This document shows positions 14,965 to 32,732 of a stretch of 48,273 nt of DNA, in pieces (positions within the stretch are counted from its first letter, which is position 1; each line of letters starts with the position of its first letter). Source of the stretch: a virus. The translations under genes were made by a program, and so were the position numbers. Location of the stretch: positions 1-48,273 of the IMG/VR virus record IMGVR_UViG_3300041809_000332; one strand, given 5' to 3'. Under the pieces are notes generated by a model. The model worked only from the letters and a program-made list of their open reading frames with translations, did no database searches and had not been told where the DNA came from.

Positions 14965-16770
14965 ATGACCAGAATTAAGCCACAAGCCAAGATTTTCTTG
15001 ATTGTGATTGCGTTAGTCGCCGTGTTCTTCGGGCTACGAACCGCCGCAGAGCATGGGTTGATTCCCACTCCGGGCGTCATGAAGGCGCTCGTCCCACAAC
15101 GGGCTGTGTTGCCGGATGTCAAGGATGCGCAGGTTGCCGATGTCACCCCTGCCGCCCTGCCCTCGGAAGGTGCAACCCAAGTAGCAGCTACTTCCATCCG
15201 TGGAGCAATTTGGGAATGGAACGCACAGATGGGCTTCATCTATGCCAACGGCGGAGCACAGACCACCAAGGGTTCGCTGATGGAAAAGCATGGGGTGAAC
15301 CTGACGCTCTACCGGCAGGACGACACGGGCAAGATGCAGGAAGACCTTATCGCCTGTGCCTCTGAACTGCATGACGGAGCTACGCAATGCTCCAAGGGTG
15401 CGAATTTCGTTGATATCATGGGGGATGGTGCCGGTCAGTTCGCTGCCGCTGTCAACCCGCAATTGGTGAAGCTCGGACCCGCATATAAGCTCAAGGTTAT
15501 CGGTGCGTTCGGCTATAGCCGGGGAGAGGATGCCTTCATGGCACCCCCTGCCGTTAAGCAAGACCCACAGAATGCCAAGGGGCTGTTGGTCGAAGGTGTT
15601 TTACGTGATGGTGACTGGAATATCGCCCTGAAATGGGAAGGCGACAACAGCATCAAGAACAACCCGGACGAGAAGACCTACGACCCGGATGCAGTCAACT
15701 GGGTAAACGCCCCCGATTATAACACGGCTGCTACCGACTATGTCGCCGGGAAATGTGATGACCGCAAGGTGGTCAAGGATGGTCATTTGACGGGCGAGAC
15801 GAAGCACGTATGCGTCAACGCCATTGTCACTTGGACACCGGGCGACGTTACTGCCGTCACACAAAAGGGCGGACTGGTTAAGGTCGTTAGCTCTAAGCAA
15901 TATCGTTCGCAGATGCCTTGCGTGATTGTCGGCCCCGGAAAGTTCTTCTCCGACAACCGGCAAGAATTCGAGGGACTGATGGCTGCGGCGTTCGAGGGCG
16001 GCGACCAGATTAAGGCTTACGACAAGGCGCTCCATAAGGCGTCGGATATCTCCGCCAAGCTCTACAACGACCAAGATGGTGCCTACTGGTACAAGTACTT
16101 CAAGGGCACCACGCAGAAAGACCCGCAGGGGTTGACGGTCGAACTGGGCGGCTCGGCGGTGTGCAATTTGGCGGATAACCTGATTCTGTTCGGGTTGAAT
16201 CCGGGCACCAATGACAACTTCCGCTCCACGTACACCATCTTCTCCAACATCGTGGCGCAGCAATACCCCGATATCGTCAAGGCCACACCTATTCCTCTGA
16301 TTGCCGAGGTTGAGGATAAGTCTTTCGTCACCGGGGCGCAGGCGGTGTTGAGCAACACCAATGAGGTTGGGGCAGTGGCGGATGTTCCCGCTTACACGCA
16401 AGCCGGAACTGAGGTTGTTTCCAAGCGCAGCTACGCCATCAACTTCATGACGGGCAGCGCCGACCTTACGCCAGCCGGTGTGCAGCAGCTTCGTGACTTG
16501 AAAGACAGCTTGGCTATCACGGGACTGTACATCAAGGTGGACGGGTATACCGACAACACGGGAAACGAACAGACCACCAACATCCCGTTGTCGGAAGCTC
16601 GGGCACAGGCAGTGAGAGCCTTCCTCCAGCGGACAGCGCCGGGCACCTTCCCGAGCAAGCGGTTCGCTTCGGTGGAGGGTCATGGGTCAGCCAACCCTGT
16701 GGCATCGAACAGCACGGCTGACGGTCGGGCTTCTAACAGACGAGTTGAAATCACCCTGATTGGAAACTAA
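14965..16770 (+). CDS. Solute-binding-like protein fused to an OmpA peptidoglycan-binding domain
   Basis: The 601-residue protein has an uncleaved-looking N-terminal membrane anchor (9-27) and a linker. A large alpha/beta region (about 78-470) has the look of an ABC-type substrate-binding protein (nitrate/taurine-like class). The C-terminal OmpA-like domain (about 490-600) shows FMTGSADLTPAG, DGYTDNTGN, LSEARAQAVRAFL and ASNRRVEITL; the Asp and Arg of such motifs hold diaminopimelate in peptidoglycan. The protein should span the periplasm, anchored in the inner membrane and gripping the wall. The ABC permease and ATPase follow at once, which supports the binding-protein reading. Six cysteines in the middle domain could form periplasmic disulfides. 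Confidence 0.85.
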   Translation: MTRIKPQAKIFLIVIALVAVFFGLRTAAEHGLIPTPGVMKALVPQRAVLPDVKDAQVADVTPAALPSEGATQVAATSIRGAIWEWNAQMGFIYANGGAQTTKGSLMEKHGVNLTLYRQDDTGKMQEDLIACASELHDGATQCSKGANFVDIMGDGAGQFAAAVNPQLVKLGPAYKLKVIGAFGYSRGEDAFMAPPAVKQDPQNAKGLLVEGVLRDGDWNIALKWEGDNSIKNNPDEKTYDPDAVNWVNAPDYNTAATDYVAGKCDDRKVVKDGHLTGETKHVCVNAIVTWTPGDVTAVTQKGGLVKVVSSKQYRSQMPCVIVGPGKFFSDNRQEFEGLMAAAFEGGDQIKAYDKALHKASDISAKLYNDQDGAYWYKYFKGTTQKDPQGLTVELGGSAVCNLADNLILFGLNPGTNDNFRSTYTIFSNIVAQQYPDIVKATPIPLIAEVEDKSFVTGAQAVLSNTNEVGAVADVPAYTQAGTEVVSKRSYAINFMTGSADLTPAGVQQLRDLKDSLAITGLYIKVDGYTDNTGNEQTTNIPLSEARAQAVRAFLQRTAPGTFPSKRFASVEGHGSANPVASNSTADGRASNRRVEITLIGN

Positions 16771-18443: not shown

Positions 18444-19385
18444 ATGAACAAACCAAGCTTTGGGGTCATTGTCGGCAGGTTTCAGGTCCATGAACTTCAT
18501 GACGGACACATGGAGTTGTTCCGCATCGTCAAAGGGCGGCACAACCGTATCATCGTATTCCTTGGCTGCAACAAGGTCGGTCCAACCCGGCATGACCCGT
18601 TGGACTTCGAGACCCGGAAGAAGATGATTCAGGCGAAGTTCCCTGAGTTCACCGTGCTGCCCCTGCGGGACTGCAAGACTGACGAGCAGTGGTCGGACAG
18701 TTTGGATGAACGTATCTCCGAAGCCGTGGGAGAAGTTCCCCACGAAGTGGTATTATACGGTAGTAGGGACTCGTTTGCTCCCTTCTATCACGGGAAGCAC
18801 AAAGTCAAGGAACTGGAAATCGAGGTTCCGGCGTCCCTTACCAGCACGGATATCCGTGCCAAGCTGACCAATAACGTCATGGAAAGCCCCGACTTCCGGG
18901 CGGGCGTCATCTACGCCATGAACCAACTGTGGCCCCGGCTCGTTACCGTGGTGGACATCGCTATCCTGCACAAGGGGGAGCATAAGACTTTTCTTCTTCT
19001 TGGCAAGAAGCCCGATGACACGTTCTGGCGCTTTCCGGGCGGGCACGCAATATTCAGCACGCCAACCTTCGAGGCTGACGCCAAGAAGGAAGCGTTCGAG
19101 GAGACGGGTCTGGACATCCAAGACCTTGAATATGTCGGCTCTCGCAAGGTCGATAGCTGGCGCTGGCGGTCGGAGCCTTCGGAAGGTTTCAAGACCGTTT
19201 TCTTCATGTCGTATAGCATGACCATGGGTGGGAAAGGCAGTGATGACCTTGCTGAAACACGGTGGTTCCCACTTGATGCAATCTCCGTAGAGGATATGGA
19301 AAAAGAACATCAGCCCCTCTTCGAGATGCTGCAACAACATCTTACCAAAAAGGAGAACACACATGCCCAAAGCACTCAAGCTTAA
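18444..19385 (+). CDS. nadM: Bifunctional NMN adenylyltransferase / Nudix hydrolase
   Basis: Residues 1-165 form a nucleotidyltransferase of the NadM type: GRFQVHELHDGH contains the HxGH site (H19-D-G-H22), and TSTDIR near 133-138 matches the ISGTxIR motif. It joins NMN and ATP to make NAD+. Residues 175-300 form a Nudix domain, with a box at about 199-224 ending KEAFEETGLD (Lys where Arg is usual in REUxEExGU); in bacterial homologues this part cleaves ADP-ribose. The next gene, overlapping by 23 bases, makes NMN from nicotinamide, so the pair is a complete two-step NAD+ salvage route. A GAGGAGG site precedes the ATG. Confidence 0.92.
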   Translation: MNKPSFGVIVGRFQVHELHDGHMELFRIVKGRHNRIIVFLGCNKVGPTRHDPLDFETRKKMIQAKFPEFTVLPLRDCKTDEQWSDSLDERISEAVGEVPHEVVLYGSRDSFAPFYHGKHKVKELEIEVPASLTSTDIRAKLTNNVMESPDFRAGVIYAMNQLWPRLVTVVDIAILHKGEHKTFLLLGKKPDDTFWRFPGGHAIFSTPTFEADAKKEAFEETGLDIQDLEYVGSRKVDSWRWRSEPSEGFKTVFFMSYSMTMGGKGSDDLAETRWFPLDAISVEDMEKEHQPLFEMLQQHLTKKENTHAQSTQA

Positions 19386-20793
19386 CCCCATTTTAAGGAC
19401 AGACAGCTACAAGCTGTCGCACTGGTTTCAGTATCCTTCGGATGCGGAATATGTGTACAGCTACCTCATGAGCCGGGGTGGTTTCTGGCAGCACACGCTG
19501 TTCTCCGGGCTACAATACATCCTCGCCGCATACTTCGAGGGCAAGGTGTTCACCAAGAAAGATGTCCACGAAGCTGCCCGCATTTGTCACCGGCATTTCG
19601 GCAACGATGAAGTATTCAACTTCAACGGCTGGATGCGGTTGCTGGAAAAGCATGGCGGCAAGTTGCCCCTGCGCATCCGGGCGGTCAAAGAAGGCACCGT
19701 GGTCCCCATCAAGAACGTGTTGATGACCATCGAAAACACTGACAAAGAATTTCCGTGGCTGACCAACTGGGCGGAAACCCAACTCCTGCAAGTGTGGTAT
19801 CCCATCACGGTTGGGACCCTGTCTTTTGAAATCAAGCAGACCATCGGCAGAGACCTCGTGCGTACCGGTGACCCGGCTGGACTCGGTTTCAAGTTGCATG
19901 ACTTCGGGTACAGGGGCGTTAGCTCTCAGGAGACCGCCGCCATCGGCGGAGCCGCTCACCTTGTTAATTTCATGGGCACTGACACCATGGCGGCTCTTTC
20001 GCTTCTGGAGCAGTTCTACGATTGTCCCTGCGCCGGTTTCTCCATCCCGGCGATGGAGCACTCCACCGTTACCTCGTGGGGTGAGGATGCCGAGGCGGAA
20101 GCTTATGCCAACATGCTGGAGAAGGTCCCGGCTGGCCTCGTGGCACTCGTGGTAGACAGCTACGACACCCACAACGCCGTTGCTAACATCTTCGGCGGCA
20201 AGTTGCGGGAAACAATCCTGCGGCGTGACGGCGTGGTGGTTCTCCGCCCGGATAGCGGTGACCCCTGTGTCGTCATCGAAGACATGTTCAACGCCATTGC
20301 CGAGAAGTTTGGCTTCGAGACAAACGCCAAGGGTTGGAAGGTCCTGCCTAAGCAGGTCCGGGTCATCCAAGGCGACGGAGTCAACTACCAGAACATCTGC
20401 CGCATCAACAGTCACCTGACACGGGCCGGGTGGTCCATGGACAACTGGGGCTACGGCATGGGCGGTGCTTTGCTTCAACAGCAGAACCGTGATACCATGC
20501 GGTTCGCCATCAAATGCTCCGCCATCTGCCGGGACGGTCGTTGGGAAGATGTCCACAAGACGGTCAAGACTGACCCGTCCAAGGCATCCATCGGTGGCAG
20601 GTTCTCCCTCTTGGAGTTGTCGGACGGCGAGTTTGAGACTGTGGAGCAGGAATACGATATGAAGCTCGCCACAGGCCACGAAGACAAGCTGGAGACAGTA
20701 TTTGAAGATGGGGTCATTAAACGGCACCAGACCCTTGACGAAGTCCGGGAAATCTCCAGCGGCTATGACCGCTACAACCGGGAAGATGACTAA
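19363..20793 (+). CDS. nadV: Nicotinamide phosphoribosyltransferase
   Basis: The 476-residue protein has the NAMPT/NadV length and wording: NPILRTDSYKLSHW at the start, FKLHDFGYRGVSS and GGAAHLVNFMGTDTM in the middle, then IPAMEHSTVTSWG, VVDSYD and VVLRPDSGDP. These build the nicotinamide and phosphoribosyl pyrophosphate sites. It converts nicotinamide and PRPP to NMN, which the upstream enzyme turns into NAD+. Such pairs in phages are described as rebuilding NAD+ after host NADase defences (the NARP2-type route). An AAAAGGAGA site lies in the overlapping upstream gene. Confidence 0.95.
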   Translation: MPKALKLNPILRTDSYKLSHWFQYPSDAEYVYSYLMSRGGFWQHTLFSGLQYILAAYFEGKVFTKKDVHEAARICHRHFGNDEVFNFNGWMRLLEKHGGKLPLRIRAVKEGTVVPIKNVLMTIENTDKEFPWLTNWAETQLLQVWYPITVGTLSFEIKQTIGRDLVRTGDPAGLGFKLHDFGYRGVSSQETAAIGGAAHLVNFMGTDTMAALSLLEQFYDCPCAGFSIPAMEHSTVTSWGEDAEAEAYANMLEKVPAGLVALVVDSYDTHNAVANIFGGKLRETILRRDGVVVLRPDSGDPCVVIEDMFNAIAEKFGFETNAKGWKVLPKQVRVIQGDGVNYQNICRINSHLTRAGWSMDNWGYGMGGALLQQQNRDTMRFAIKCSAICRDGRWEDVHKTVKTDPSKASIGGRFSLLELSDGEFETVEQEYDMKLATGHEDKLETVFEDGVIKRHQTLDEVREISSGYDRYNREDD

Positions 20794-23172: not shown

Positions 23173-24846
23173 TTACGTGTAAGACTCTAAGAACTTGGTG
23201 TTGCCAAACACCTTGACTCGGGGCGTAAGCGAGATGCCCGGACCGTAGGATGACACCGTGGCGGTGCTGGTTATTTCCAAGGTGACCAGCCGGGTGACCA
23301 GCGGTACGAATACCTTCCAATCAGCCATAGCCGAAACAGTCAGACTGTAGACAAACTGCGGAGCAGTGCCGCTGAGGTCACGCTGCAATCCCACATATGA
23401 CCGGCTGGCTTCAAACAAGGTGATGCCGTCTGCCTCCATATTCGTCCGGCGCATGATGAGAAGCTCTCGGCGGAGCAACTCGCTGAGGTCGGAAGCGGTC
23501 TGGAGGTCATTTGCCCGGCAGTCCACGGTGAAGGTCAGATTCTCCTTGCTCCCATATACCTCATAGGTCTCGGCGGTGTAGGGCTGCACGATGATAGCCA
23601 CTTGGTCATCCTTGAGGACATTGTCGCCAATAGCTATCCGCAGGCCGGGGAGGACATTCTCATTGAGGTTGTACTTTTTGGCTCGGGCCTTTGTTCTTCC
23701 CGTATCTACTCGAACTTCCCAGCGGCACCATTCCCCCGGCAAGAGAAGAGTGGGCAAGGTACACGTCCCATCCGTATTGGGTACGAGTGACGTGTAGTTT
23801 CCGAGAGAGGTCTGTACGAATACCTGCCCCGGTGCTAGACTGTTTCCCTCCGTCACTTGCGTTTGTAGGATATTCTCCGGGTTGGTCCCCGGTACGCCCG
23901 TGGGGTCAACCTTGACGACCATGTTTGCCGTAATAGTCATTCCGGGCGGCGTGTACGGAGAGAGTTCCAGCCAATCATTGCTGGCAAAATAGGTGTAGTC
24001 CTTCCCCTTGATAAGCTCGTAGCCGTTCTGGTCCGTAAGCGTGAAAGAGAGGAGGGTCTGGACCATCTGCGGTGGGCTGCCGCCTCCCGGAACGTCCACA
24101 AGGCCCAGCGGAATACCAACGACTTCTTGTCCTCCCACGGTACTTTGGCATACCACTTGCTGGACGGTCTGTTGATACCAGTAATCCAACAGGGGAGTAA
24201 GCTGGACGGGTGGGGAACCGGCGAAGAGGACCAACCCGGCTGGGGTATCGGTCAGCAAATAGCCAAAATGCGGAGCGAGGAGCAAATCCACCGGAACAGG
24301 AGGAGAAACGAGCGTAGTTTGCCACGTGCCGTCGTTTATAGCCGTTTCCAGAGGCGTTGGGGGGCTTCCCCTGCCTGAGACATACCCCGAGACCGTAGTG
24401 CCGTCAATTTGGGGAGCGAAGTAGACAAGGGAGCCTTGAGCGTTGACAACCTTACCCTCCTGCCATGTGTATTTCTGGATGGTCAATTCTACATCCCGTG
24501 TCTGCTCATTGACCTCATCCACATTGAAATAGTATACCCCCGCTGCGGGCGTTTGCTGGGTGGAATCCACCTCTTGCACCCACTCGATAAATTCCCCTTC
24601 TTTGCTCTGGATTTTGGCAAGAATCGCCCGCCCGTAGTTCTTGCACATGAAATAGTCAGGAGAGAGGCGGTTGCCGGTGGAGGTGACGTTCTTGATGCTG
24701 ATTTGAGCGTCCTTCCATTGAATGAGGTTGTTGTACTGAGAAGAGACTTCTCCAAGGGTGTACCGGAACCGGGGGGACCGGTTTACGGCATCTTCGATAA
24801 CTCTGCGGAGATAAGCGACGAGATTCCCGCCCGTCAAGTCAAGCAT
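23173..24846 (-). CDS. Putative virion (neck/tail) protein (557 aa)
   Basis: This is the last gene of the minus-strand structural block. The first 80 residues are helical and mixed (LVAYLRRVIEDAVNRSPRFR). The middle is beta-rich with many Pro/Gly loops (SPPVPVDLLLAPHFGYLL; VPGGGSPPQMVQT). Residues about 430-540 look like a compact alpha/beta unit with a long helix (DLQTASDLSELLRRELLIMR) between strands, recalling tail-completion or tail-terminator folds. No exact family was recognised. Size, composition and place next to other virion-like genes point to a neck or tail-junction protein. A GGGAG site precedes the start. Confidence 0.8.
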   Translation of the reverse strand: MLDLTGGNLVAYLRRVIEDAVNRSPRFRYTLGEVSSQYNNLIQWKDAQISIKNVTSTGNRLSPDYFMCKNYGRAILAKIQSKEGEFIEWVQEVDSTQQTPAAGVYYFNVDEVNEQTRDVELTIQKYTWQEGKVVNAQGSLVYFAPQIDGTTVSGYVSGRGSPPTPLETAINDGTWQTTLVSPPVPVDLLLAPHFGYLLTDTPAGLVLFAGSPPVQLTPLLDYWYQQTVQQVVCQSTVGGQEVVGIPLGLVDVPGGGSPPQMVQTLLSFTLTDQNGYELIKGKDYTYFASNDWLELSPYTPPGMTITANMVVKVDPTGVPGTNPENILQTQVTEGNSLAPGQVFVQTSLGNYTSLVPNTDGTCTLPTLLLPGEWCRWEVRVDTGRTKARAKKYNLNENVLPGLRIAIGDNVLKDDQVAIIVQPYTAETYEVYGSKENLTFTVDCRANDLQTASDLSELLRRELLIMRRTNMEADGITLFEASRSYVGLQRDLSGTAPQFVYSLTVSAMADWKVFVPLVTRLVTLEITSTATVSSYGPGISLTPRVKVFGNTKFLESYT

Positions 24847-24891: not shown

Positions 24892-25116
24892 TTACAGCTT
24901 TGCTTTGATGGCGGCGATGACCTTTTTCGCATCCGTCTCGGCAACGGCTTCTGCCTTGGCAAGTTCTGCCTTGACTGCGGCGAGAACCTTCTCGGCTTCC
25001 GGCTTAACCTTGGCGGCTTCTGCCGTGGCTACGGCCTTGGCCTTTGCCCACCATCCAACAACGATGGCTACAACGTGGCTGATTGCCAAACCGACTACTG
25101 CTGAGGTGATTACCAT
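24892..25116 (-). CDS. Small membrane protein with Ala/Lys/Glu helix (holin-like?)
   Basis: The start at 25116 has a perfect TAGGAGGAAAC site; a longer frame from 25185 has none. The 74-residue product has one membrane segment (about 3-23, VITSAVVGLAISHVVAIVVG) and then a long regular Ala-Lys-Glu-Val helix to the end. A single-pass protein with a charged tail could be a class III-like holin or spanin-type membrane anchor, but no endolysin lies beside it. The function is therefore open. Confidence 0.7.
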   Translation of the reverse strand: MVITSAVVGLAISHVVAIVVGWWAKAKAVATAEAAKVKPEAEKVLAAVKAELAKAEAVAETDAKKVIAAIKAKL

Positions 25117-25153
25117 GTTTCCTCCTACTGTTTCACTGACTCTCTGCCAAAAT

Positions 25154-26227
25154 TTACCAGCTACTTCCGCCACTGACCTTGTCATCGGTCAGTGCATCAG
25201 CACTTCCGATGTTGTCTTCCTTGTCCATGACCTTGACCGGCAGGGCGCTGTAATCGACGCCGGGCGGCGGAGGCGGAACGGTCTGAGTGATGGGTTCAAT
25301 CCACTGGTGAATGCTGCGCCGGATATCTCCGATGGACACAAACCATGAAATCCTCGGGTACCAGCGGTTCTCAATCTGAATGGAGTCGGCCCCGTCGTAA
25401 AACAGGATGTTCCACTCACTGCCATCATGCGCTTGGAAGACGGCTCCCGGTAGCATGTAGGCGAAGAAAATCTCATCTCCCTCGATAGGGCTGAGAGGGT
25501 TGGGAAGCTGCATGGTCCCCGGATTGGGGTGGAACTGGGCAAAGGTGGAAGTACGGACATCCGTGGGGTCGCCCACCATGGCTTGCAGGTCGGAATCAGC
25601 GTTGGGGTGGTCCCCCTCGCACAGTACTCGGGCGGTTTTGGATACCAATGCCGCCAAATCGCTTGCTTTCGTAGAAATTCCCATGAGCGTTCCTCTCTTA
25701 TGGCTTGTATAGTCGCCATCTTTGGATTTTGCCTGCTGCTTTCCAAATTTAGCCGGTGCTAAGATGGCGGATTTAGCATCTGCCAAGACTTCTTCCATGC
25801 TGTCGAACGGAGTGCCCTCCCAGTCCTCGTAAACATTCTCCTCATCATTGAGGCGGTACTCCATCTCATCCCAGTAACCCCCAGCACTCTTTATGGGTTT
25901 CCACCCATGCCATGATATTTCAATAACTTGCGGGGGGATTACCCGCTCGGCATAGAAGGCATGAGTGTCTCCTTTATCCTGCACCATGCCTTGAAGGTTT
26001 CCCACTCTTAATAGGATGGGAGCACCCGCCGCCCCCTCCAACTGTAAGGTATCCCGGAAGACAATTTCTCCGTAATAGTAGGCGTGCTCGGGACTGTCGG
26101 CAAAGAACACTTTTCCGAGGGAAGTATCCCCCAAGTCCCCTCCCCAGTGTGGGTCTACCGAGGGTTGTAACCCTTTGTTTTTAATGCTTTCTACCCGGTC
26201 AGTGGAAGTGCAATGATAAAGGTACAT
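25154..26227 (-). CDS. Virion-region protein with N-terminal ADP-ribosyltransferase-like domain
   Basis: Residues 1-110 read like a small ADP-ribosyltransferase fold. YHCTSTDRVESIKNKGLQPS opens it with a YHxTS strand and a helix ending in GLxPS. GKVFFADSPEHAYYYGE is the second strand-helix unit, and FYAERVIPPQVIEI the Glu-bearing strand before an IPP turn. This is an H-Y-E arrangement. The rest (about 190-357) is soluble and unlike the first part, ending in a Pro-rich segment. Such domains move ADP-ribose from NAD+ to a target. Being among neck/tail genes, the protein may be packaged and injected. Its start overlaps the stop of the upstream gene by one base (TAATG). Confidence 0.7.
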   Translation of the reverse strand: MYLYHCTSTDRVESIKNKGLQPSVDPHWGGDLGDTSLGKVFFADSPEHAYYYGEIVFRDTLQLEGAAGAPILLRVGNLQGMVQDKGDTHAFYAERVIPPQVIEISWHGWKPIKSAGGYWDEMEYRLNDEENVYEDWEGTPFDSMEEVLADAKSAILAPAKFGKQQAKSKDGDYTSHKRGTLMGISTKASDLAALVSKTARVLCEGDHPNADSDLQAMVGDPTDVRTSTFAQFHPNPGTMQLPNPLSPIEGDEIFFAYMLPGAVFQAHDGSEWNILFYDGADSIQIENRWYPRISWFVSIGDIRRSIHQWIEPITQTVPPPPPGVDYSALPVKVMDKEDNIGSADALTDDKVSGGSSW

Positions 26228-27537
26228 TAGTTCTGTATCCTCCCGAAGGTTACGGTCCTTCCCACCGGGGGTTCAATAGTGTTCTCAAAAGGCTTATCCG
26301 GTTGCTCCCGGATATTCACGATGGGTTCTCCATCACCCTTAAGGTGGAGTGGGTCGATGCCTTGGTCCGGGGTATCCCGGTAGATGGGGTTGTAGATTGT
26401 CGGCAGGCCGGTGTTGACGGGAATGAGGTACCGGGTGTCACCCTCGGTCAGTAATTGAACGCCGAAGTCCTGCTGGAGAAGGATACCCCTCGGCTGCTTG
26501 TAGGTGACGCCATGGATGACCAAACGTTCTCCCGTCCGGCGAATGATAAGGTCACCATCCTGTACGATGGGGGTGTTGGTCAGGTAACTTTTCGATTCAC
26601 GGGTCGCCTTGATACCCCCGCCTTCGTCCAGTTCACGGACAAGCGCCGTGTCAGGGGGGACGTAGAGAAAGTCATAGGGACCGTAGTAGCCTCCGACGAC
26701 CCCGGTTTCAAAGCAAACTTTGCATCCGTGACGGGGAGTACCCATTCCCGACTCGGGGCGCACGCAGCCGCAAGGTTCTCCACGGGTCCGGCGAAACATT
26801 ATATAAGCGGGTTCGCCCACCTGTTCAAAAACCCAGTGGTTGCGGTTTACCATTTCTTTGTATTCCCAAGTAATCTGGTCTACCTCTTGGGTATTCACAA
26901 CGGGAGCGCCCATGGCTCCGGGCTTGTGGATTTCTCCGCCGTCACCCACCCCTACTACCGTGTAGAATTGCCGTGCCAGCGAGGTGTAGATATCCACATA
27001 GTTGGCTAGCCTCTTGAAAAACGCCCTTACTTCTTGAATGCCAGCGTAGTTAGCGACGGCTACATTATCCGTGGAAACCACCGCCGTATCTGATACCGCT
27101 CCACCCTTGGCAAGGGTGTTGTCCATGGGGAACCAAACAGTCTGGTCCAAGGCCCTCACCTCTGTGGGACGTATCTCACTCTTATTGTTAAACATGTCGG
27201 TGAGGACAATCTTTACATCATCAGGGTTGTTGGCTACCATGGGACGGGTCGCCACAATGTTGGAGTAGGGAATCTCCGGGAGCTTGAAACCCCAGCGGCC
27301 CAACTCCCCCTGTTCCACCCAGTCCTGTTGGCGCACGATAAACTCCACCTCTTCAAGGTAGGCTTGGTCCCTCCAGAAGTGTCCCCGCCATGTTCCCTTG
27401 TTGAGCTTTTTCCAATTGCTTGGGTGGTCGTAGGCCCGGTAGATATTATAGCCCCTTGTAGCCTCGGGGTCGTCCACCCACCACAGGTCCCGGCTGCCAA
27501 CGTAACTCGAATTGATGACCAGTAGTTCGCTAATCAT
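26227..27537 (-). CDS. Putative virion structural protein with Cys-rich site (436 aa)
   Basis: The protein is large, soluble and beta-rich. A cysteine-rich element near the middle (CGCVRPESG, then HGCKVCFETG) probably binds zinc. Phrases such as VGEPAYIMFRRTRGEPCG followed by a GPYDFLYVPPDT stretch resemble neck or baseplate proteins of large myoviruses, but I cannot name the family. A GAGGTA ribosome site and a 9-base inverted repeat lie upstream. It is translationally linked to the ADP-ribosyltransferase-like gene downstream. Confidence 0.8.
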   Translation of the reverse strand: MISELLVINSSYVGSRDLWWVDDPEATRGYNIYRAYDHPSNWKKLNKGTWRGHFWRDQAYLEEVEFIVRQQDWVEQGELGRWGFKLPEIPYSNIVATRPMVANNPDDVKIVLTDMFNNKSEIRPTEVRALDQTVWFPMDNTLAKGGAVSDTAVVSTDNVAVANYAGIQEVRAFFKRLANYVDIYTSLARQFYTVVGVGDGGEIHKPGAMGAPVVNTQEVDQITWEYKEMVNRNHWVFEQVGEPAYIMFRRTRGEPCGCVRPESGMGTPRHGCKVCFETGVVGGYYGPYDFLYVPPDTALVRELDEGGGIKATRESKSYLTNTPIVQDGDLIIRRTGERLVIHGVTYKQPRGILLQQDFGVQLLTEGDTRYLIPVNTGLPTIYNPIYRDTPDQGIDPLHLKGDGEPIVNIREQPDKPFENTIEPPVGRTVTFGRIQN

Positions 27538-27601: not shown

Positions 27602-28525
27602 TTAACCGAGTAGCCAGCGTTGCTGCCGTAGACCGGCGCTGTAGGGACGGATGGCAGTAATCAGGGGTGCCCACTCTTGGAACTCCTGACCGTAGCTCTG
27701 GGATAAACTCAAGTAAAGACTTGACTTGTTGATGTCCAAACTTACCCCGTTCAAGCTGTAACTGAATTCGTCAGCCGCCCAACGTGCGCCCTCGGCGGAT
27801 AGGCAAGATGCCGCCGCACCTACCGCCGCACAGTTTCCCCAGTCCTTGGGTAGATTCTCAAGACTGTAGTTCGTCAAGTTCTTGGGGTTCCACGTGTTTA
27901 ACTTGCTAATGTTAATGTCAAGCATCCTTAGTATGGTTGAGTCAAGCCAGATATACCCCACACGGGTGGTGTATCCGGCGACCACTTTACCCGGCGTGGG
28001 CGGGCGGAAGTGATAGTTGCGGTCCGGGTTGGTATCGCTGATAAGCTCCCGGACTGCCATAATGGCCGGTGTGTACTTGTTCTTGGTCAGGGGATGCGGA
28101 GTGATGATTACCGAGGGGGCCTCGAAGGCAGAGTCAGCCGGGTCGATAGGCTGAACGACGAAATCCTCATAGACCCGTGTTTCCGGCTCCCCTTCATATT
28201 GGATGAGGTACCAGACCAGTCGGAAGATTCCCCGCCAAAGGGTGGGTATGGTCATGTTGACCCAGTAAGCCCCCACGGATGCCCGGCGAGGGCACATCCG
28301 GGGTTCGGTAGAGAGGATGAGGCTATCTTCGGGCAGCCGTCCCATGTGGTTGGGTTGCTCGGCATCATATTCATATGCCCGCTGCCCCACTTCGGGGACC
28401 TTTTCCGTTACCTGAAATATCGAATAGGAGATTGACACGGGGTCAACCATCCGTCCTTTGGAATCCCGGACAAGGATACTAAGGTCCCCCGGTCCCAGTG
28501 TTTTCCCTTGATTAAGTGTCTCCAT
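27602..28525 (-). CDS. Putative virion structural protein (307 aa), first gene of the minus block
   Basis: The start at 28525 has a strong GCAGGAGAG site; a longer frame from 28558 does not. The N-terminal half is beta-rich (GPGDLSILVRDSKGRMVDPV, SYSIFQVTE), with an Ig-like look and an aromatic stretch IFRLVWYLIQYEG. The C-terminal half is helical (GNCAAVGAAASCLSAEGARW). No family was named. Gene order suggests a neck or head-completion protein. Confidence 0.78.
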   Translation of the reverse strand: METLNQGKTLGPGDLSILVRDSKGRMVDPVSISYSIFQVTEKVPEVGQRAYEYDAEQPNHMGRLPEDSLILSTEPRMCPRRASVGAYWVNMTIPTLWRGIFRLVWYLIQYEGEPETRVYEDFVVQPIDPADSAFEAPSVIITPHPLTKNKYTPAIMAVRELISDTNPDRNYHFRPPTPGKVVAGYTTRVGYIWLDSTILRMLDINISKLNTWNPKNLTNYSLENLPKDWGNCAAVGAAASCLSAEGARWAADEFSYSLNGVSLDINKSSLYLSLSQSYGQEFQEWAPLITAIRPYSAGLRQQRWLLG

Positions 28526-28630
28526 CTGGCTCTCCTGCCTAAAGAAACGGAAAGTCATCCCGCCCTTAAATTGACTTTTACCCTCACTTAATAGGGCAGA
28601 GAATCCCCGCTACGGCGGGCAAGAGGAACT
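28526..28630. promoter_or_regulatory. Divergent intergenic region between the two structural blocks
   Basis: All genes to the left (23173-28525) run leftward and those to the right run rightward, so both transcripts should start here. TTGACTTTTA occurs at 28571-28580 with TTAATAGGG at 28589-28597. The same TTGACTTTTA followed by TATAGAGGG lies on the minus strand at 8392-8367. A short CCCGC/GCGGG hairpin (about 28606-28619) lies in the rightward leader. The spacing does not fit a standard sigma-70 promoter, so a phage-specific signal is possible. Confidence 0.4.
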
Positions 28631-29011
28631 ATGGCAATATACGCTTTCAAGTGTGATACCTGCGGAGTCCTTGTTGAAGAACTCATGCCCATGAACAAGG
28701 CCACTTTTGAAGACCGCCCCTGTATTCGACCCACCTGTAAAGGAAAATGCGTCTACCAGCTTAAGGGTGCGCCGGGCCTCAAGACTGACAATATGTCAAA
28801 TCCCACTTTTGATGTGGTGGTGGGAGCGGATGCCGAAAAGCGCTGGGAGAAAATCCATGAACGCCAAGCAGTTAGGGACAAAGTTCGCAAGGAGTCGGGG
28901 GAAAAGGCCCTCATCGCCACAAGCAGTGAGAGCTACCGCACCCTGCCGGGCACCAAGCTCCGGGAGGTGGTAATTCCACCCTCGGCGCAGCCCAAGGTTC
29001 TGGGGGAATGA
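28631..29011 (+). CDS. FmdB-like zinc-ribbon protein (126 aa)
   Basis: It opens with MAIYAFKCDTCGVLVEELMP and has a second Cys pair around 32-41 (PCIRPTCKGKC), the usual FmdB-type N-terminal zinc ribbon found in many phages near structural genes. The tail is helical and charged (RWEKIHERQAVRDKVRKE). In bacteria the family is annotated as regulatory; in phages the role is unknown. It is the first gene of the rightward structural block, preceded by AAGAGGA. Confidence 0.82.
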   Translation: MAIYAFKCDTCGVLVEELMPMNKATFEDRPCIRPTCKGKCVYQLKGAPGLKTDNMSNPTFDVVVGADAEKRWEKIHERQAVRDKVRKESGEKALIATSSESYRTLPGTKLREVVIPPSAQPKVLGE

Positions 29012-29123
29012 GGGCTTATCTCTTGCAATCGAAGCAAGAATTAGACTTTCATCCCCATAGTTGAGGAGCAAGAAATAAATGCCCGTTCAGCGGCCTAATA
29101 GCTGAAAATTGAGGAGACTTACT

Positions 29124-32100
29124 ATGGCACTCTTTGGAAGCTATGCACCCCCCGGAGTTTACACCTCGGTTATCATTTCTGGAGCGGGTCAGCCCCTCTT
29201 TACGAACAACCGTATCCCGGTCATCATCGGTGAAGGACAGGAGTTCTTTGAACAGGACAACGTGGAGCTTTTCCGTGGTTCGTCCTCTGTCGCTAGCCCG
29301 CAGGTGGTGAACGAGAACATCTCCAACCAAGTCACGGCAATCACCAATACCCTCCATACCACCTATTTCCCGGTGGTCACAGCGGCGGCAGTTGGTCTGG
29401 CAGGTGGAGGAACTGGAGCGGGAACGGTCACCAATGACCCCAGTCAGGTTCAGATAACCATCGACGGCGTGCCCGGCACGGTTATCTCTCTCGTGGGTCA
29501 GACCGGCGAATTCACCACACAGGAGCTTATCACTCCGGGTCAGAACGTGGAAATCAGTTACTACTTCGCCCGGACCGACACCCTCATTACCAATGAGGAT
29601 GACTCAGACCAAGTTCCCTCCTTTGCCACGCTGACGATTTACAACAACATCGCCAGTCCTCCGGGCGGTGACTCCATGGTCATCAGCACCACGCTCCCCG
29701 GCGTTACAGGCAACCTTGTCAGTCTTACCATTTTCGATGACACCCTGTCTTCGCCTCCGGGTATCGGTGTGCTGGACACACAGGCGGTCAGCGGAGCCGG
29801 TACGGACCATATCAGTATCGACATCGCCGAGGTCGGCGGCGGCAAGCGCACCCTTGAGGACATTTATAACCTCGTGCAGGCGGGAATTCCCACCTTGGAC
29901 GCTGGTTACCTCACGGCGACTCAGCCCGCCATCCAATCTCCTCCCATCCCGGCTGCAACCATCTCCCCGACTTTCCTCTCGGGTGGTGCAGGACCCAACA
30001 CCAATACCGTTTTCAAGGTTGAGCATGTTCCCATCGTAGACGGTAGCGGCGGTGGGGTGGTCACTACTGACCCCAGCAAGGTTACAGTCACAGTGAACGG
30101 CACCCCCGTCACGGTCTCCGCCGTTAACGGTGCGGAAGGTCTCGTCACGGTTAAGAATCCCGTGGCCTTCCCGTCCACCGTCACCATCACCTACTACACC
30201 AACACTTACCAGAACACCTACGACATCATTCCGGCGCAGAATGTCACCTCCATCATCGAAGTTGGTTTGGGACCCAACCGGGCTGACTTCGTCCAAGACA
30301 CAGACTACAATCTTGGTTTGGATTCAGTCGGAAATGCGGTTATCAACTGGGGCGCAGGCAGTCAGACCTTGGTGGGAAGTTCCACCACGGGCTTTACTCC
30401 CTTCGGTCCGACCCAGATTCTCACCACCCTCGTGGATGAGAAGGTGTTCCTCCGCACTTGCACGGGAGTTGCCAACGGCAAGAACCTCACGTTCACACTG
30501 CCCGACAGCCCCGTGGATGGCAGCGGTCTCGGCAGGGTAACCGACGACCCAGCAAAAATCATGGTCTTCGTCGGCACCAATCCTGTGGAAGCTCTGGACA
30601 ACTACTATCCCGGCACTTCCGAGCGGGTCATTCAACTGACCGGAAGCACGGGAAGCTTTACCCTCTACAATGCCCCCGGCGCTGGAAACAACGTGTATGC
30701 CAGCTATTACCGCAACACGCTGCATGACCACTCCTATACACTCACCGTGGTCAACCCCGGCATCCCCGGACAGGGCACTTACAAGATGAAGGATGAGGTA
30801 GGACGTATTCTGCCGGTGGTATCGTTTGATGCCGTCCACAGTGTCGTCACCGAATCCGGTGCTTTCAATCAGACAGGCATTGTGTGGCCTTTCGCTTTCC
30901 CGGACCTCTACGATTCTCCGGGTGAAGTGGATGAGACTGTCACCTTGACATTCCAAGATGACGGGTACACCAAGGATGCCAATCCGGGCGCACAGGCATA
31001 CCTCTTGGCACAGGGGATTCTCTTCTTCTCTACGACCCCCGGTTCTGGTGGAGATGCCATTACAGTCGCTTTCAATACCACGGGCAGCTACGGTGTCAGC
31101 GTGGTTGGAAACGCCATCACCTTCAACGGTGTGACGACCACCAGCCAAGTCATCGACCTCGCCGGTTCCGGTATCAGCACCACCTTTGGAACGGTACTTG
31201 CCAACCTTAAGACGGCAGGGACCATCCAGACCGCTGCTCCCCTGAACCTCGCTGGCGGTGTGGACCCCAGTTCCCCGGAGCCTTATGCTCTCCGGTACCT
31301 CGTTACCTCCAGCAATCCCAAGGGTTCGGGTTCCGGTGGAGTAGGCACCAATGTGGGCTACCTTGACCAGACGTATGTTGACGAAATCACCGGTCTCAAG
31401 TTCACCATCGTCAACCCGCAAGATGCCCTTGACTACGGATACACCAGTCTCCCGACGCCCCAGTACAACTTCCAGCCGGGCGACACACTGGTATTCGATG
31501 TCAGCAGCGAAACCCCCCGTGTAACGGGAACCGTTTACGTTCCTTTCAGCACGGCGGAGCCGAACAACTTGGTAGCCATCGCCGGTCTCCACACCGAAGT
31601 CATTACCACTTTCGGTGCCAATGCCGGGGATACCGCCATCATCAACACCTTTGCTCCATCCGCCAATCAGCCGAGCATCGGTGAGTACTACTACATCAGC
31701 TTCCAGACCGAAAAGACGGCAGCGGACATGGCAATCACTCTCTACACCAACCCGTCCGACGCTTACGCCGCATACGGTCAGCCGAGCACCATCAACCGGG
31801 TGTCGCTTGGTGTGCAGTTGATGACTCAGAACGGCGCACAGCAGTTCGGCGTCATTCAGGTACCGAAGCAAGCCGGTCTCAATGTGGCCTCGGACGCTGA
31901 CTTTATCAGCGCCATCCAGACCTTGACAACCGCCCTGCCCGGAACCAACCAGAAGGCGAATGTCATCGTTCCTCTCAGCGTGAGCACCACGGTTCATCAG
32001 TTCTTGAGCCGTCAACTCATCACGCAGGCAACCGTTCGTAACAAGGGCGAGGCCATCGGCTTCGTCGGCTACAGCACTACCACCTCCGCCAATCAAGCAA

Positions 32101-32732
32101 GTGCCAACGCCGTTGCTTTGAAGAATGCCCGCATGATTGCTGTTGGTATGCCAGCGGCGGGAGTCCTTATCACTAACGGCCAGACCGGGCAGCAGATTGA
32201 GTACGCCGTGGACGGCAGCTTTATGGCAGCCGCTCTTGCCGGACTCAATACCAACCCTGCCAACGATGTGGCTACCACCCTCACCAATCAGAATTTGGTT
32301 GGGTTCAGCCGCCTGCTCGTGCAGTACGACGACACCACCATGAACCTCATGGCATCGAATGGTCTGGTAGTTTTGACCAACAACAACGGGGCGCTCAAAG
32401 TGCGTCACTACAAGAGCACCGACCCGAGCAACCCAATCACTTCCGAACCGACCTGCACCACAGTCACCGACTACGTGGCTCAGCAGTTCCGTGCAGACCT
32501 TGCACAGTTCATCGGCAGGAAGTTGGTCACCGGACTGACCACGGATATTCAGGTGGTCTGCAACTCCCGGTTGGTCTCATTGGTGAATAACCAAATCATC
32601 AGTGGATACAAGAGCCTATCCGTGGTGCCGGACCCGAGCGACCCCACCACGGTGGATGTGACCGTCACCTTCAAGCCGATGTTCAGCTTGCTGTACATCA
32701 GCGTGACCTTCACGGTTACAACGACGTTATAA
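29124..32732 (+). CDS. Tail sheath protein, with three repeated inserted domains
   Basis: The ATG at 29124 (TTGAGGAG upstream) gives 1202 residues, far above the usual 400-700 for contractile sheaths. The C-terminus has the sheath signature: a helix-rich core, then NNQIISGYKSLSVVPDPSDP and a last strand pair VTVTFKPMFSLLYISVTFTV. The N-terminus (YAPPGVYTSVIISG) is also sheath-like. Between them lie three related beta domains (about 80-155, 292-371 and 438-547), each reading roughly (V/I)DGSGGGxVTxDPSKVxVxVNG and ending in a YYxNT strand. They probably decorate the outside of the tail. The sheath contracts to drive the tube through the envelope. A short TTCAGC/GCTGAA hairpin and an 8-codon frame (29079-29105) lie in the leader. 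Confidence 0.88.
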   Translation: MALFGSYAPPGVYTSVIISGAGQPLFTNNRIPVIIGEGQEFFEQDNVELFRGSSSVASPQVVNENISNQVTAITNTLHTTYFPVVTAAAVGLAGGGTGAGTVTNDPSQVQITIDGVPGTVISLVGQTGEFTTQELITPGQNVEISYYFARTDTLITNEDDSDQVPSFATLTIYNNIASPPGGDSMVISTTLPGVTGNLVSLTIFDDTLSSPPGIGVLDTQAVSGAGTDHISIDIAEVGGGKRTLEDIYNLVQAGIPTLDAGYLTATQPAIQSPPIPAATISPTFLSGGAGPNTNTVFKVEHVPIVDGSGGGVVTTDPSKVTVTVNGTPVTVSAVNGAEGLVTVKNPVAFPSTVTITYYTNTYQNTYDIIPAQNVTSIIEVGLGPNRADFVQDTDYNLGLDSVGNAVINWGAGSQTLVGSSTTGFTPFGPTQILTTLVDEKVFLRTCTGVANGKNLTFTLPDSPVDGSGLGRVTDDPAKIMVFVGTNPVEALDNYYPGTSERVIQLTGSTGSFTLYNAPGAGNNVYASYYRNTLHDHSYTLTVVNPGIPGQGTYKMKDEVGRILPVVSFDAVHSVVTESGAFNQTGIVWPFAFPDLYDSPGEVDETVTLTFQDDGYTKDANPGAQAYLLAQGILFFSTTPGSGGDAITVAFNTTGSYGVSVVGNAITFNGVTTTSQVIDLAGSGISTTFGTVLANLKTAGTIQTAAPLNLAGGVDPSSPEPYALRYLVTSSNPKGSGSGGVGTNVGYLDQTYVDEITGLKFTIVNPQDALDYGYTSLPTPQYNFQPGDTLVFDVSSETPRVTGTVYVPFSTAEPNNLVAIAGLHTEVITTFGANAGDTAIINTFAPSANQPSIGEYYYISFQTEKTAADMAITLYTNPSDAYAAYGQPSTINRVSLGVQLMTQNGAQQFGVIQVPKQAGLNVASDADFISAIQTLTTALPGTNQKANVIVPLSVSTTVHQFLSRQLITQATVRNKGEAIGFVGYSTTTSANQASANAVALKNARMIAVGMPAAGVLITNGQTGQQIEYAVDGSFMAAALAGLNTNPANDVATTLTNQNLVGFSRLLVQYDDTTMNLMASNGLVVLTNNNGALKVRHYKSTDPSNPITSEPTCTTVTDYVAQQFRADLAQFIGRKLVTGLTTDIQVVCNSRLVSLVNNQIISGYKSLSVVPDPSDPTTVDVTVTFKPMFSLLYISVTFTVTTTL

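What the first reader, a model, noticed from the sequence alone, without database searches (positions are those of the whole stretch)
25154..26227. ADP-ribosyltransferase-like domain fused to a neck/tail-region protein
The first 110 residues carry a YHxTS opening, a helix ending in GLQPS, and a Glu-bearing strand before an IPP turn, as in small ADP-ribosyltransferases. The gene lies within virion genes, so the protein may enter the cell with the DNA and modify a host target using NAD+, as T4 Alt does. The phage also encodes NAD+ synthesis.
Basis: inference. Interest (0 to 1): 0.75.

Follow-up and report, generated by a model that had tools for sequence, protein, structure and literature searches.

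The report
Phage neck protein carrying ADP-ribosyltransferase cargo
A soil jumbo-phage gene joins a small enzyme-like domain with the ADP-ribosyltransferase fold to the front of a conserved head-to-tail region protein, and related phages carry other domains at the same place, which suggests a swappable way of loading cargo onto the virus particle.

Summary
Confirmed, with corrections. The ORF is on the minus strand (357 aa). Residues 1-106 are an ART domain: a deeper alignment gave an AlphaFold2 model (pLDDT 81.7) whose PDB matches are headed by ARTs (Tpt1/KptA Z 9.7, pertussis S1 8.0, DarT1 7.1). The active-site pattern is H5-F41-E94 with Y51, not literally H-Y-E, and differs from KptA (H-H, plus an N-lobe absent here).

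The "fusion partner" (residues 182-357) is a conserved protein encoded between minor-tail and tail-terminator genes of jumbo myophages. In most relatives it stands alone. In one clade the ART and a histidine-phosphatase domain are fused in frame before it. The window has lost the phosphatase through two in-frame deletions (150 and 504 nt). All 7 distinct fused ART/phosphatase genes keep the partner's own ribosome-binding site and ATG, so two products (free, and cargo-bearing) are likely. Other relatives carry different small domains there.

Best explanation: exchangeable N-terminal cargo on a neck/tail-junction protein, on a fraction of subunits. Virion loading, injection and catalysis are inferred, not shown. 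ARTs fused to head proteins are already proposed in print; this is a new variant.

The parts
25910..26227 (-). ART domain core, residues 1-106 (H5 at 26213-26215, F41 at 26105-26107, Y51 at 26075-26077, E94 at 25946-25948)
   Evidence: AF2 pLDDT 81.7; Foldseek and VIA matches to ARTs; column conservation
25748..25909 (-). C-terminal extension of the ART (residues 107-160), two short strands and a helix; WHGW and DWxGTP motifs conserved in the clade
   Evidence: alignment A1, model
25733..25747 (-). Scar FGKQQ left from the deleted histidine-phosphatase domain; two in-frame deletions of 150 and 504 nt relative to L002
   Evidence: comparison with L002
25692..25699 (-). Internal Shine-Dalgarno-like AAGAGAGG, 7 nt before the ATG at 25684
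   Evidence: sequence; kept in 7 of 7 distinct fused ART/phosphatase genes, one as AAGGGAGG
25157..25684 (-). C part: conserved 176-aa neck/tail-junction protein with its own start (stop codon at 25154-25156)
   Evidence: stand-alone in most relatives; between minor-tail and tail-terminator genes in Tunturi_5
26227..27537 (-). Upstream gene P0002, homologue of Tunturi_5 ORF322 (annotated minor tail protein); its stop overlaps the ART start by one base (TAATG)
27602..28558 (-). P0005, homologue of Tunturi_5 ORF319 (annotated head-tail connector)
24892..25185 (-). P0004, small membrane-like alanine/lysine-rich ORF overlapping the gene's 3' end; a likelier start with AGGAGG upstream is at 25115
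23173..24846 (-). P0003, homologue of Tunturi_5 ORF324 (annotated tail terminator)
   Evidence: weak Pfam tail-terminator match E 0.0088, below cut-off
29109..32732 (+). Homologue of the Tunturi_5 tail sheath (ORF326)
   Evidence: 45% identity over residues 1-1195
19363..20793 (+). NAMPT (nicotinamide phosphoribosyltransferase)
   Evidence: PF04095 2e-49, PF18127 2e-31
18444..19385 (+). NadM-like adenylyltransferase fused to Nudix
   Evidence: PF00293 9.5e-11; CTP_transf_like 0.0027, below its cut-off

Best explanation
The gene makes two proteins. Translation from the first ATG, coupled to the upstream tail gene, gives an ART domain fused to the N-terminus of a neck/tail-junction protein (C part). 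Translation from the internal ATG at 25684 gives the C part alone. The free form supplies most subunits; the long form places a minority of subunits carrying an NAD+-using enzyme in the virion, to act on a host (or phage) target at the start of infection. The P0002-to-C gap is a cargo site where different domains have been fused in frame to the C part: ART, histidine phosphatase, both, or other small domains. Shown here: the fold, the fusion frames, the retained internal start, the variable cargo. Inferred: that both forms are made, that the long form enters the virion, that it is delivered, and that it catalyses ADP-ribosylation. The target is unknown.
For: ART fold. Purifying selection on the ART. 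One open frame ART-phosphatase-C in three distinct lineages (L002-L006, from five metagenomes; L009/L010; L011), plus L013 with a rearranged phosphatase. In L009 the phosphatase has no in-frame ATG, GTG or TTG between residue 138 (inside the ART) and 243 (inside the phosphatase), so an intact one can only be made as a fusion. Both window deletions are multiples of three. Retained SD and ATG of the C part in 7 of 7 fused ART/phosphatase genes. In-frame cargo in 11 of 34 distinct loci with five unrelated-looking cargo types. C part among head-tail junction genes. Nearest outside ART relatives (3 of 3: L227-L229) carry a shared N-terminal MIKLKxLLxE-like peptide also found on neighbouring genes (10 of 65 frames, against 0 of 766 in control loci), resembling a capsid-targeting sequence. 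Published precedent for ARTs fused to head proteins: PMC9503650, sections 13 and 27.
Against: No proteomics or activity data. The C part has no recognisable family and was not modelled, so its place in the virion rests on gene order and on annotations of Tunturi_5 that are themselves predictions. A neck protein need not lie on the DNA path, so injection is uncertain. The second active-site position is F, not Y. Most relatives manage without cargo. The window's exact ART-C joint is seen in one contig only. Cargo was recognised by its open frame, which favours fused cases.
Confidence: 0.55

Rival explanations
1. Incidental read-through: the cargo genes sit in a mobile-gene hot spot and simply share the C part's stop codon; the long form is a by-product, only the free C part is structural, and the ART acts free or not at all.
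For: Homing-endonuclease-like genes also insert in this gap (7 of 34 loci, called by eye). The C part keeps its own start in all 7 fused ART/phosphatase genes. The ART cassette is exchanged by recombination: ART dS 1.54 against C dS 0.14, window to L002.
Against: The fused frame survives in several divergent lineages with all length changes in frame; L009's phosphatase has no start of its own; the endonuclease-like genes are in other frames, the cargo domains are in frame.
Confidence: 0.2
2. The fusion is real and in the particle or assembly complex, but acts late inside the infected cell (for example shielding assembly from a defence, or modifying phage proteins) rather than being delivered.
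For: The gene lies with virion genes, presumably expressed late. PMC9503650 section 27 itself raises countering of immune processes that target packaging components as an alternative.
Against: The outside relatives with capsid-targeting-like peptides point to packaging, but they are a different phage group.
Confidence: 0.2
3. KptA/Tpt1-like RNA 2'-phosphotransferase (RNA repair) tethered to a virion protein.
For: Closest solved folds are Tpt1/KptA (Z 9.7, rmsd 1.5 over 82 residues).
Against: The ORF begins three residues before YHxT, so the RNA-binding N-lobe is absent; the KptA second-His column is F; H is found there only in the 5 KptA rows of A7.
Confidence: 0.06
4. Catalytically dead or NADase-only ART domain.
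For: F instead of Y at position 41; PMC9503650 section 13 notes fast-evolving phage ARTs and possible NADases.
Against: H5, Y51 and E94 are conserved in 5 of 5 clade members and E94 in 8 of 9 of A8.
Confidence: 0.15

Closest known systems
Phage ARTs fused to MuF or portal head proteins, and ARTs in polyvalent proteins (PMC9503650; PMC5512222)
   Same: ART domain joined to a protein of the packaging/virion module, predicted to be delivered with DNA; enriched in myophages and jumbo phages; co-occurs with NadV/NadM
   Different: Partner is a small neck/tail-junction protein, not MuF or portal; cargo at the N-terminus; partner keeps its own start; histidine phosphatase in tandem; the ART matches no Pfam ART family above cut-off
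T4 Alt
   Same: Proposed role: NAD+-dependent modification early in infection from a virion-carried enzyme
   Different: Alt is an R-S-E ART packaged as a free internal protein; this one has H5 at the first position and is fused to a junction protein
Tpt1/KptA RNA 2'-phosphotransferase
   Same: Closest solved fold of the ART lobe
   Different: No N-lobe, no second histidine, E at the third position
Tunturi_5 ORF321, annotated MutT/NUDIX hydrolase
   Same: ART-containing protein in the same virion module of a related phage, next to the same minor-tail gene
   Different: 1362-aa polyvalent-type protein with ART-PolyVal, 2H-like, GNAT and SprT-like matches; no counterpart found in the window by tblastn

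Membership tests
ART superfamily | ART split beta-sheet fold with a strand-1 His motif | tested here: met
   AF2 model pLDDT 81.7, pTM 0.77; all 13 Foldseek rows at E <= 0.001 and the top VIA rows are ARTs. Caveat: 5 of 35 alignment rows are viral KptA-like sequences
H-Y-[EDQ] ART clade | H, Y, and E/D/Q at the three positions | tested here: inconclusive
   H5 9 of 9; position 41 is F in 8 and C in 1 of 9; E94 8 of 9; a further Y51 8 of 9 (A8). Clade names from PMC9503650 section 27
H-Y-[EDQ] ART clade | Spatial clustering of the three residues | not testable with these tools
KptA/Tpt1 (PF01885) | N-terminal RNA-binding lobe before the ART lobe | tested here: not met
   ART begins at residue 1 of the ORF; the lobe is recalled, and visible as chain residues before 91-94
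KptA/Tpt1 (PF01885) | Second histidine (H-H-h) | tested here: not met
   F41; H in exactly the 5 KptA rows of A7
T4 Alt / R-S-E ARTs | Arg at the first catalytic position | tested here: not met
   H5 in 5 of 5 clade members and 9 of 9 in A8
ART-PolyVal (PF18760) | Score above the Pfam cut-off | tested here: not met
   No match at E <= 1 for P0001 nor at E <= 10 for the 5 members of A1
Virion-delivered ART effector | Presence in virions and delivery to the host | not testable with these tools
   Context and fusion only
Histidine phosphatase branch 1 (relatives' middle domain) | PF00300 above cut-off, RHG motif and second His | tested here: met
   L002 2.8e-32, L052 2.7e-33 and L013 2.4e-32; RHG and THS/SHS conserved in 4 of 4 of A3. 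Absent from the window

The most novel reading that the evidence does not exclude
The neck/tail-junction protein is a general docking platform: jumbo phages of this group swap enzymes onto its N-terminus while its retained internal start sets a low ratio of cargo-bearing to plain subunits, giving a graded, modular effector-loading system at the head-tail junction unlike MuF/portal fusions or capsid-targeting peptides.
Probability: 0.35. Interest if true: 0.75.

Novelty: new variant of a known kind. Interest (0 to 1): 0.58.

Why it matters
If true, it shows a loading route for virion enzymes that differs from head-internal proteins and MuF/portal fusions: a dual-start structural gene whose long form carries exchangeable cargo. 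That makes the cargo identity, stoichiometry and delivery of enzymes in uncultured soil jumbo phages directly testable, and offers a place to look for new host-modifying enzymes.

Tried and rejected
Single-sequence and small-profile searches gave nothing significant for the ART: PDB phmmer 0 hits, Pfam PARP 0.05-0.18 and PTS_2-RNA 0.3, PHROG KptA 0.36, NCBIfam KptA 0.013 for one relative, PDB profile KptA 0.6 and 0.044 with 9 sequences. These are weak but converge on the same motif. tblastn of the ART in 50,697 phage records: none. Two genome-contig scans: none.

First AF2 run with 5 sequences failed (pLDDT 40.7). PDB and PHROG searches for the C part: nothing meaningful.

The PDB profile search with A7 (KptA 1e-12, DarT1 1.7e-6) is partly circular, because A7 holds 5 KptA-like rows and its distant rows were picked by a motif pattern, without the KptA rows, is the less biased version and is only suggestive. 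E-values are conditional on that motif too.

Considered and dropped: that the window fusion is the ancestral form (relatives show a middle phosphatase); that it is Alt-like; that it is KptA. Counts that depend on my choices: of 34 distinct loci with both genes I counted 11 as cargo-bearing and left out L089 and L090, whose 80 open codons lie over the upstream gene (gap 49 nt). Homing-endonuclease calls in the gap are by eye except L002, which matches NUMOD3. The capsid-targeting-like pattern was written after seeing the peptides; 9 of its 10 hits lack a Shine-Dalgarno; an earlier version of the scan with a Shine-Dalgarno demand found only 1.

Full report
What is there. The ORF at 25154-26227 lies on the minus strand and encodes 357 aa. 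The record is a 48,273-base virus contig with no other copy. The gene starts within the stop codon of P0002 (TAATG) and is followed by P0004 and P0003. Tunturi_5, an isolated jumbo myophage of Acidobacteriota (PMC11924767; search listing and passages seen), has homologues in the same order: head-tail connector, minor tail, the C part (annotated hypothetical), tail terminator; its sheath homologue is at 29109-32732 on the other strand. These names are the depositors' predictions.

The N-terminal domain. Sequence searches alone were weak but hit PARP and KptA at the same YHxT...GL motif. From 111 distinct segments, an HMM of the five clade members picked clear relatives (L220 5.5e-21, L178 1.3e-19), and a further scan added L229. 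With 35 rows (A7) AlphaFold2 gave pLDDT 81.7 and pTM 0.77, against 40.7 with 5 rows. Foldseek lists 13 PDB chains at E <= 0.001, all ARTs (Tpt1/KptA and pertussis S1). VIA gives Tpt1 Z 9.7 (rmsd 1.5, 82 residues), pertussis S1 Z 8.0 (rmsd 3.6, 114), DarT1 Z 7.1 (rmsd 4.1, 121). Z under 8 alone would be weak; the agreement of rows and the alignment are what persuade me. H5 is invariant. Position 41, the second signature position, is Y in 18, F in 11, C in 1 and H in exactly the 5 KptA rows of A7; ours is F. E94 is kept in 8 of 9 and Y51 in 8 of 9 of the close set A8. So it is an ART of the H-type, outside KptA and outside the R-S-E clade of Alt, and not cleanly H-Y-E.

The partner and the true architecture. 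All 30 loci first found by the whole protein had their best matching segment in the C-terminal part only. In L002-L006 (five metagenomes) the ORF is 575 aa: ART, a histidine phosphatase (PF00300, 2.8e-32), then the C part. L009/L010 and L011 have the same order; L013 has ART, a phosphatase with its two halves in swapped order, and the C part; L007/L008 and L052 have phosphatase and C part without ART. The A1 scan found the ART in 9 contigs, all of them fused loci. The window differs from L002 by two deletions of 150 and 504 nt with TGGA and AGGCA at the joints, leaving an FGKQQ scar in frame. ART divergence from L002 (dS 1.54) far exceeds that of the C part (0.14), so the cassette has been exchanged by recombination, yet dN/dS is 0.03.

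Two starts. The C part's ATG is preceded by AAGAGAGG or AAGGGAGG in 7 of 7 distinct fused ART/phosphatase genes, and AGAGAGG also occurs before many unfused ones (33 distinct genes examined). The phosphatase has its own SD and ATG in L002 and L011, but in L009 no start codon lies between residues 138 and 243, so there it needs the fusion. I infer a long and a short product. T4 gp21 is a precedent for an essential second start in a head gene (passage in PMC9026906).

Other cargo. Among 34 distinct loci with both flanking genes, 11 carry an open, in-frame domain in the gap before the C part: window, L002, L007, L009, L011, L013, L052 (ART and/or phosphatase), and L024, L029, L066, L085, whose domains differ from these and from each other. 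L029 has weak zinc-finger matches, L066 a sub-threshold DUF7576 match, L024 and L085 none. Seven loci carry endonuclease-like genes in the gap in another frame (by eye). Since I recognised cargo by its open frame, this count favours fusions, and the ART/phosphatase members share ancestry, so I count about five independent cargo types.

Hints of virion loading. The nearest outside ART relatives (L227-L229) start with MIKLKSLLEEN-type peptides shared by neighbouring genes: 10 of 65 frames, against 0 of 766 in 14 control loci including the window. This resembles T4 capsid-targeting sequences, described as short N-terminal propeptides. The window's group lacks them and instead shows fusion to the C part. 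Iyer et al. (PMC9503650; abstract, passages, sections 13 and 27 read) report ARTs fused to MuF/portal proteins, about 44% of phage ARTs in packaging contexts, and NadM always with NadV; the window has NAMPT and a NadM-like gene. The polyvalent-protein paper (PMC5512222; passages only) describes MuF and portal fusions of effector domains. PMC9503650 holds no mention of histidine phosphatase, and none of the 8 papers listed of 95 counted held the term. My searches of the open library listed no paper on a neck-protein ART fusion, judged from listings only.

Verdict. The deeper picture, exchangeable in-frame cargo on a junction protein with a kept internal start, is a new variant of a known kind. 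Virion presence, delivery, catalysis and target are open.

Noticed in passing
L013:2897-3622: The histidine-phosphatase domain appears circularly permuted: its C-terminal part (VTHSR...) precedes its N-terminal part (RHGHT...), in frame between ART and C part. One contig only, so an assembly artefact is possible.
   Followed up: partly
L032:2482-6570 (Tunturi_5 ORF321): Annotated MutT/NUDIX hydrolase, but 1362 aa with ART-PolyVal (6e-48), 2'-5' RNA ligase-like, GNAT and SprT-like matches: looks like a polyvalent protein.
   Followed up: partly
L227, L228, L229: Many neighbouring genes share an N-terminal MIKLKxLLxE-like peptide, possibly a capsid-targeting signal in an unrelated phage group; most lack Shine-Dalgarno sites.
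   Followed up: partly
L107-L226: A large sample of phage ORFs with the YHxT...GLxP motif, including a recurrent family YHIT...GLVPKSKSK..HPERIYL and KptA-like ORFs; most are unnamed.
   Followed up: partly
L002:2860-3738; also L013:6497-7426 and gaps of L024, L026, L029, L092: GIY-YIG-like homing endonuclease genes (NUMOD3 in L002) inserted near the neck genes of relatives; absent at that place in the window.
   Followed up: partly
window 24892-25185: Small membrane-like alanine/lysine-rich ORF overlapping the 3' end of the ART gene; a likelier start with AGGAGG is at 25115.
   Followed up: no
window 27602-32732: The sheath and next genes are on the plus strand while connector, minor tail, C part and terminator are on the minus strand; in Tunturi_5 all are on one strand, so the module is split or inverted here.
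   Followed up: no
window 14965-16770: 601-aa protein with an OmpA domain (5e-16), not expected in a phage contig.
   Followed up: no
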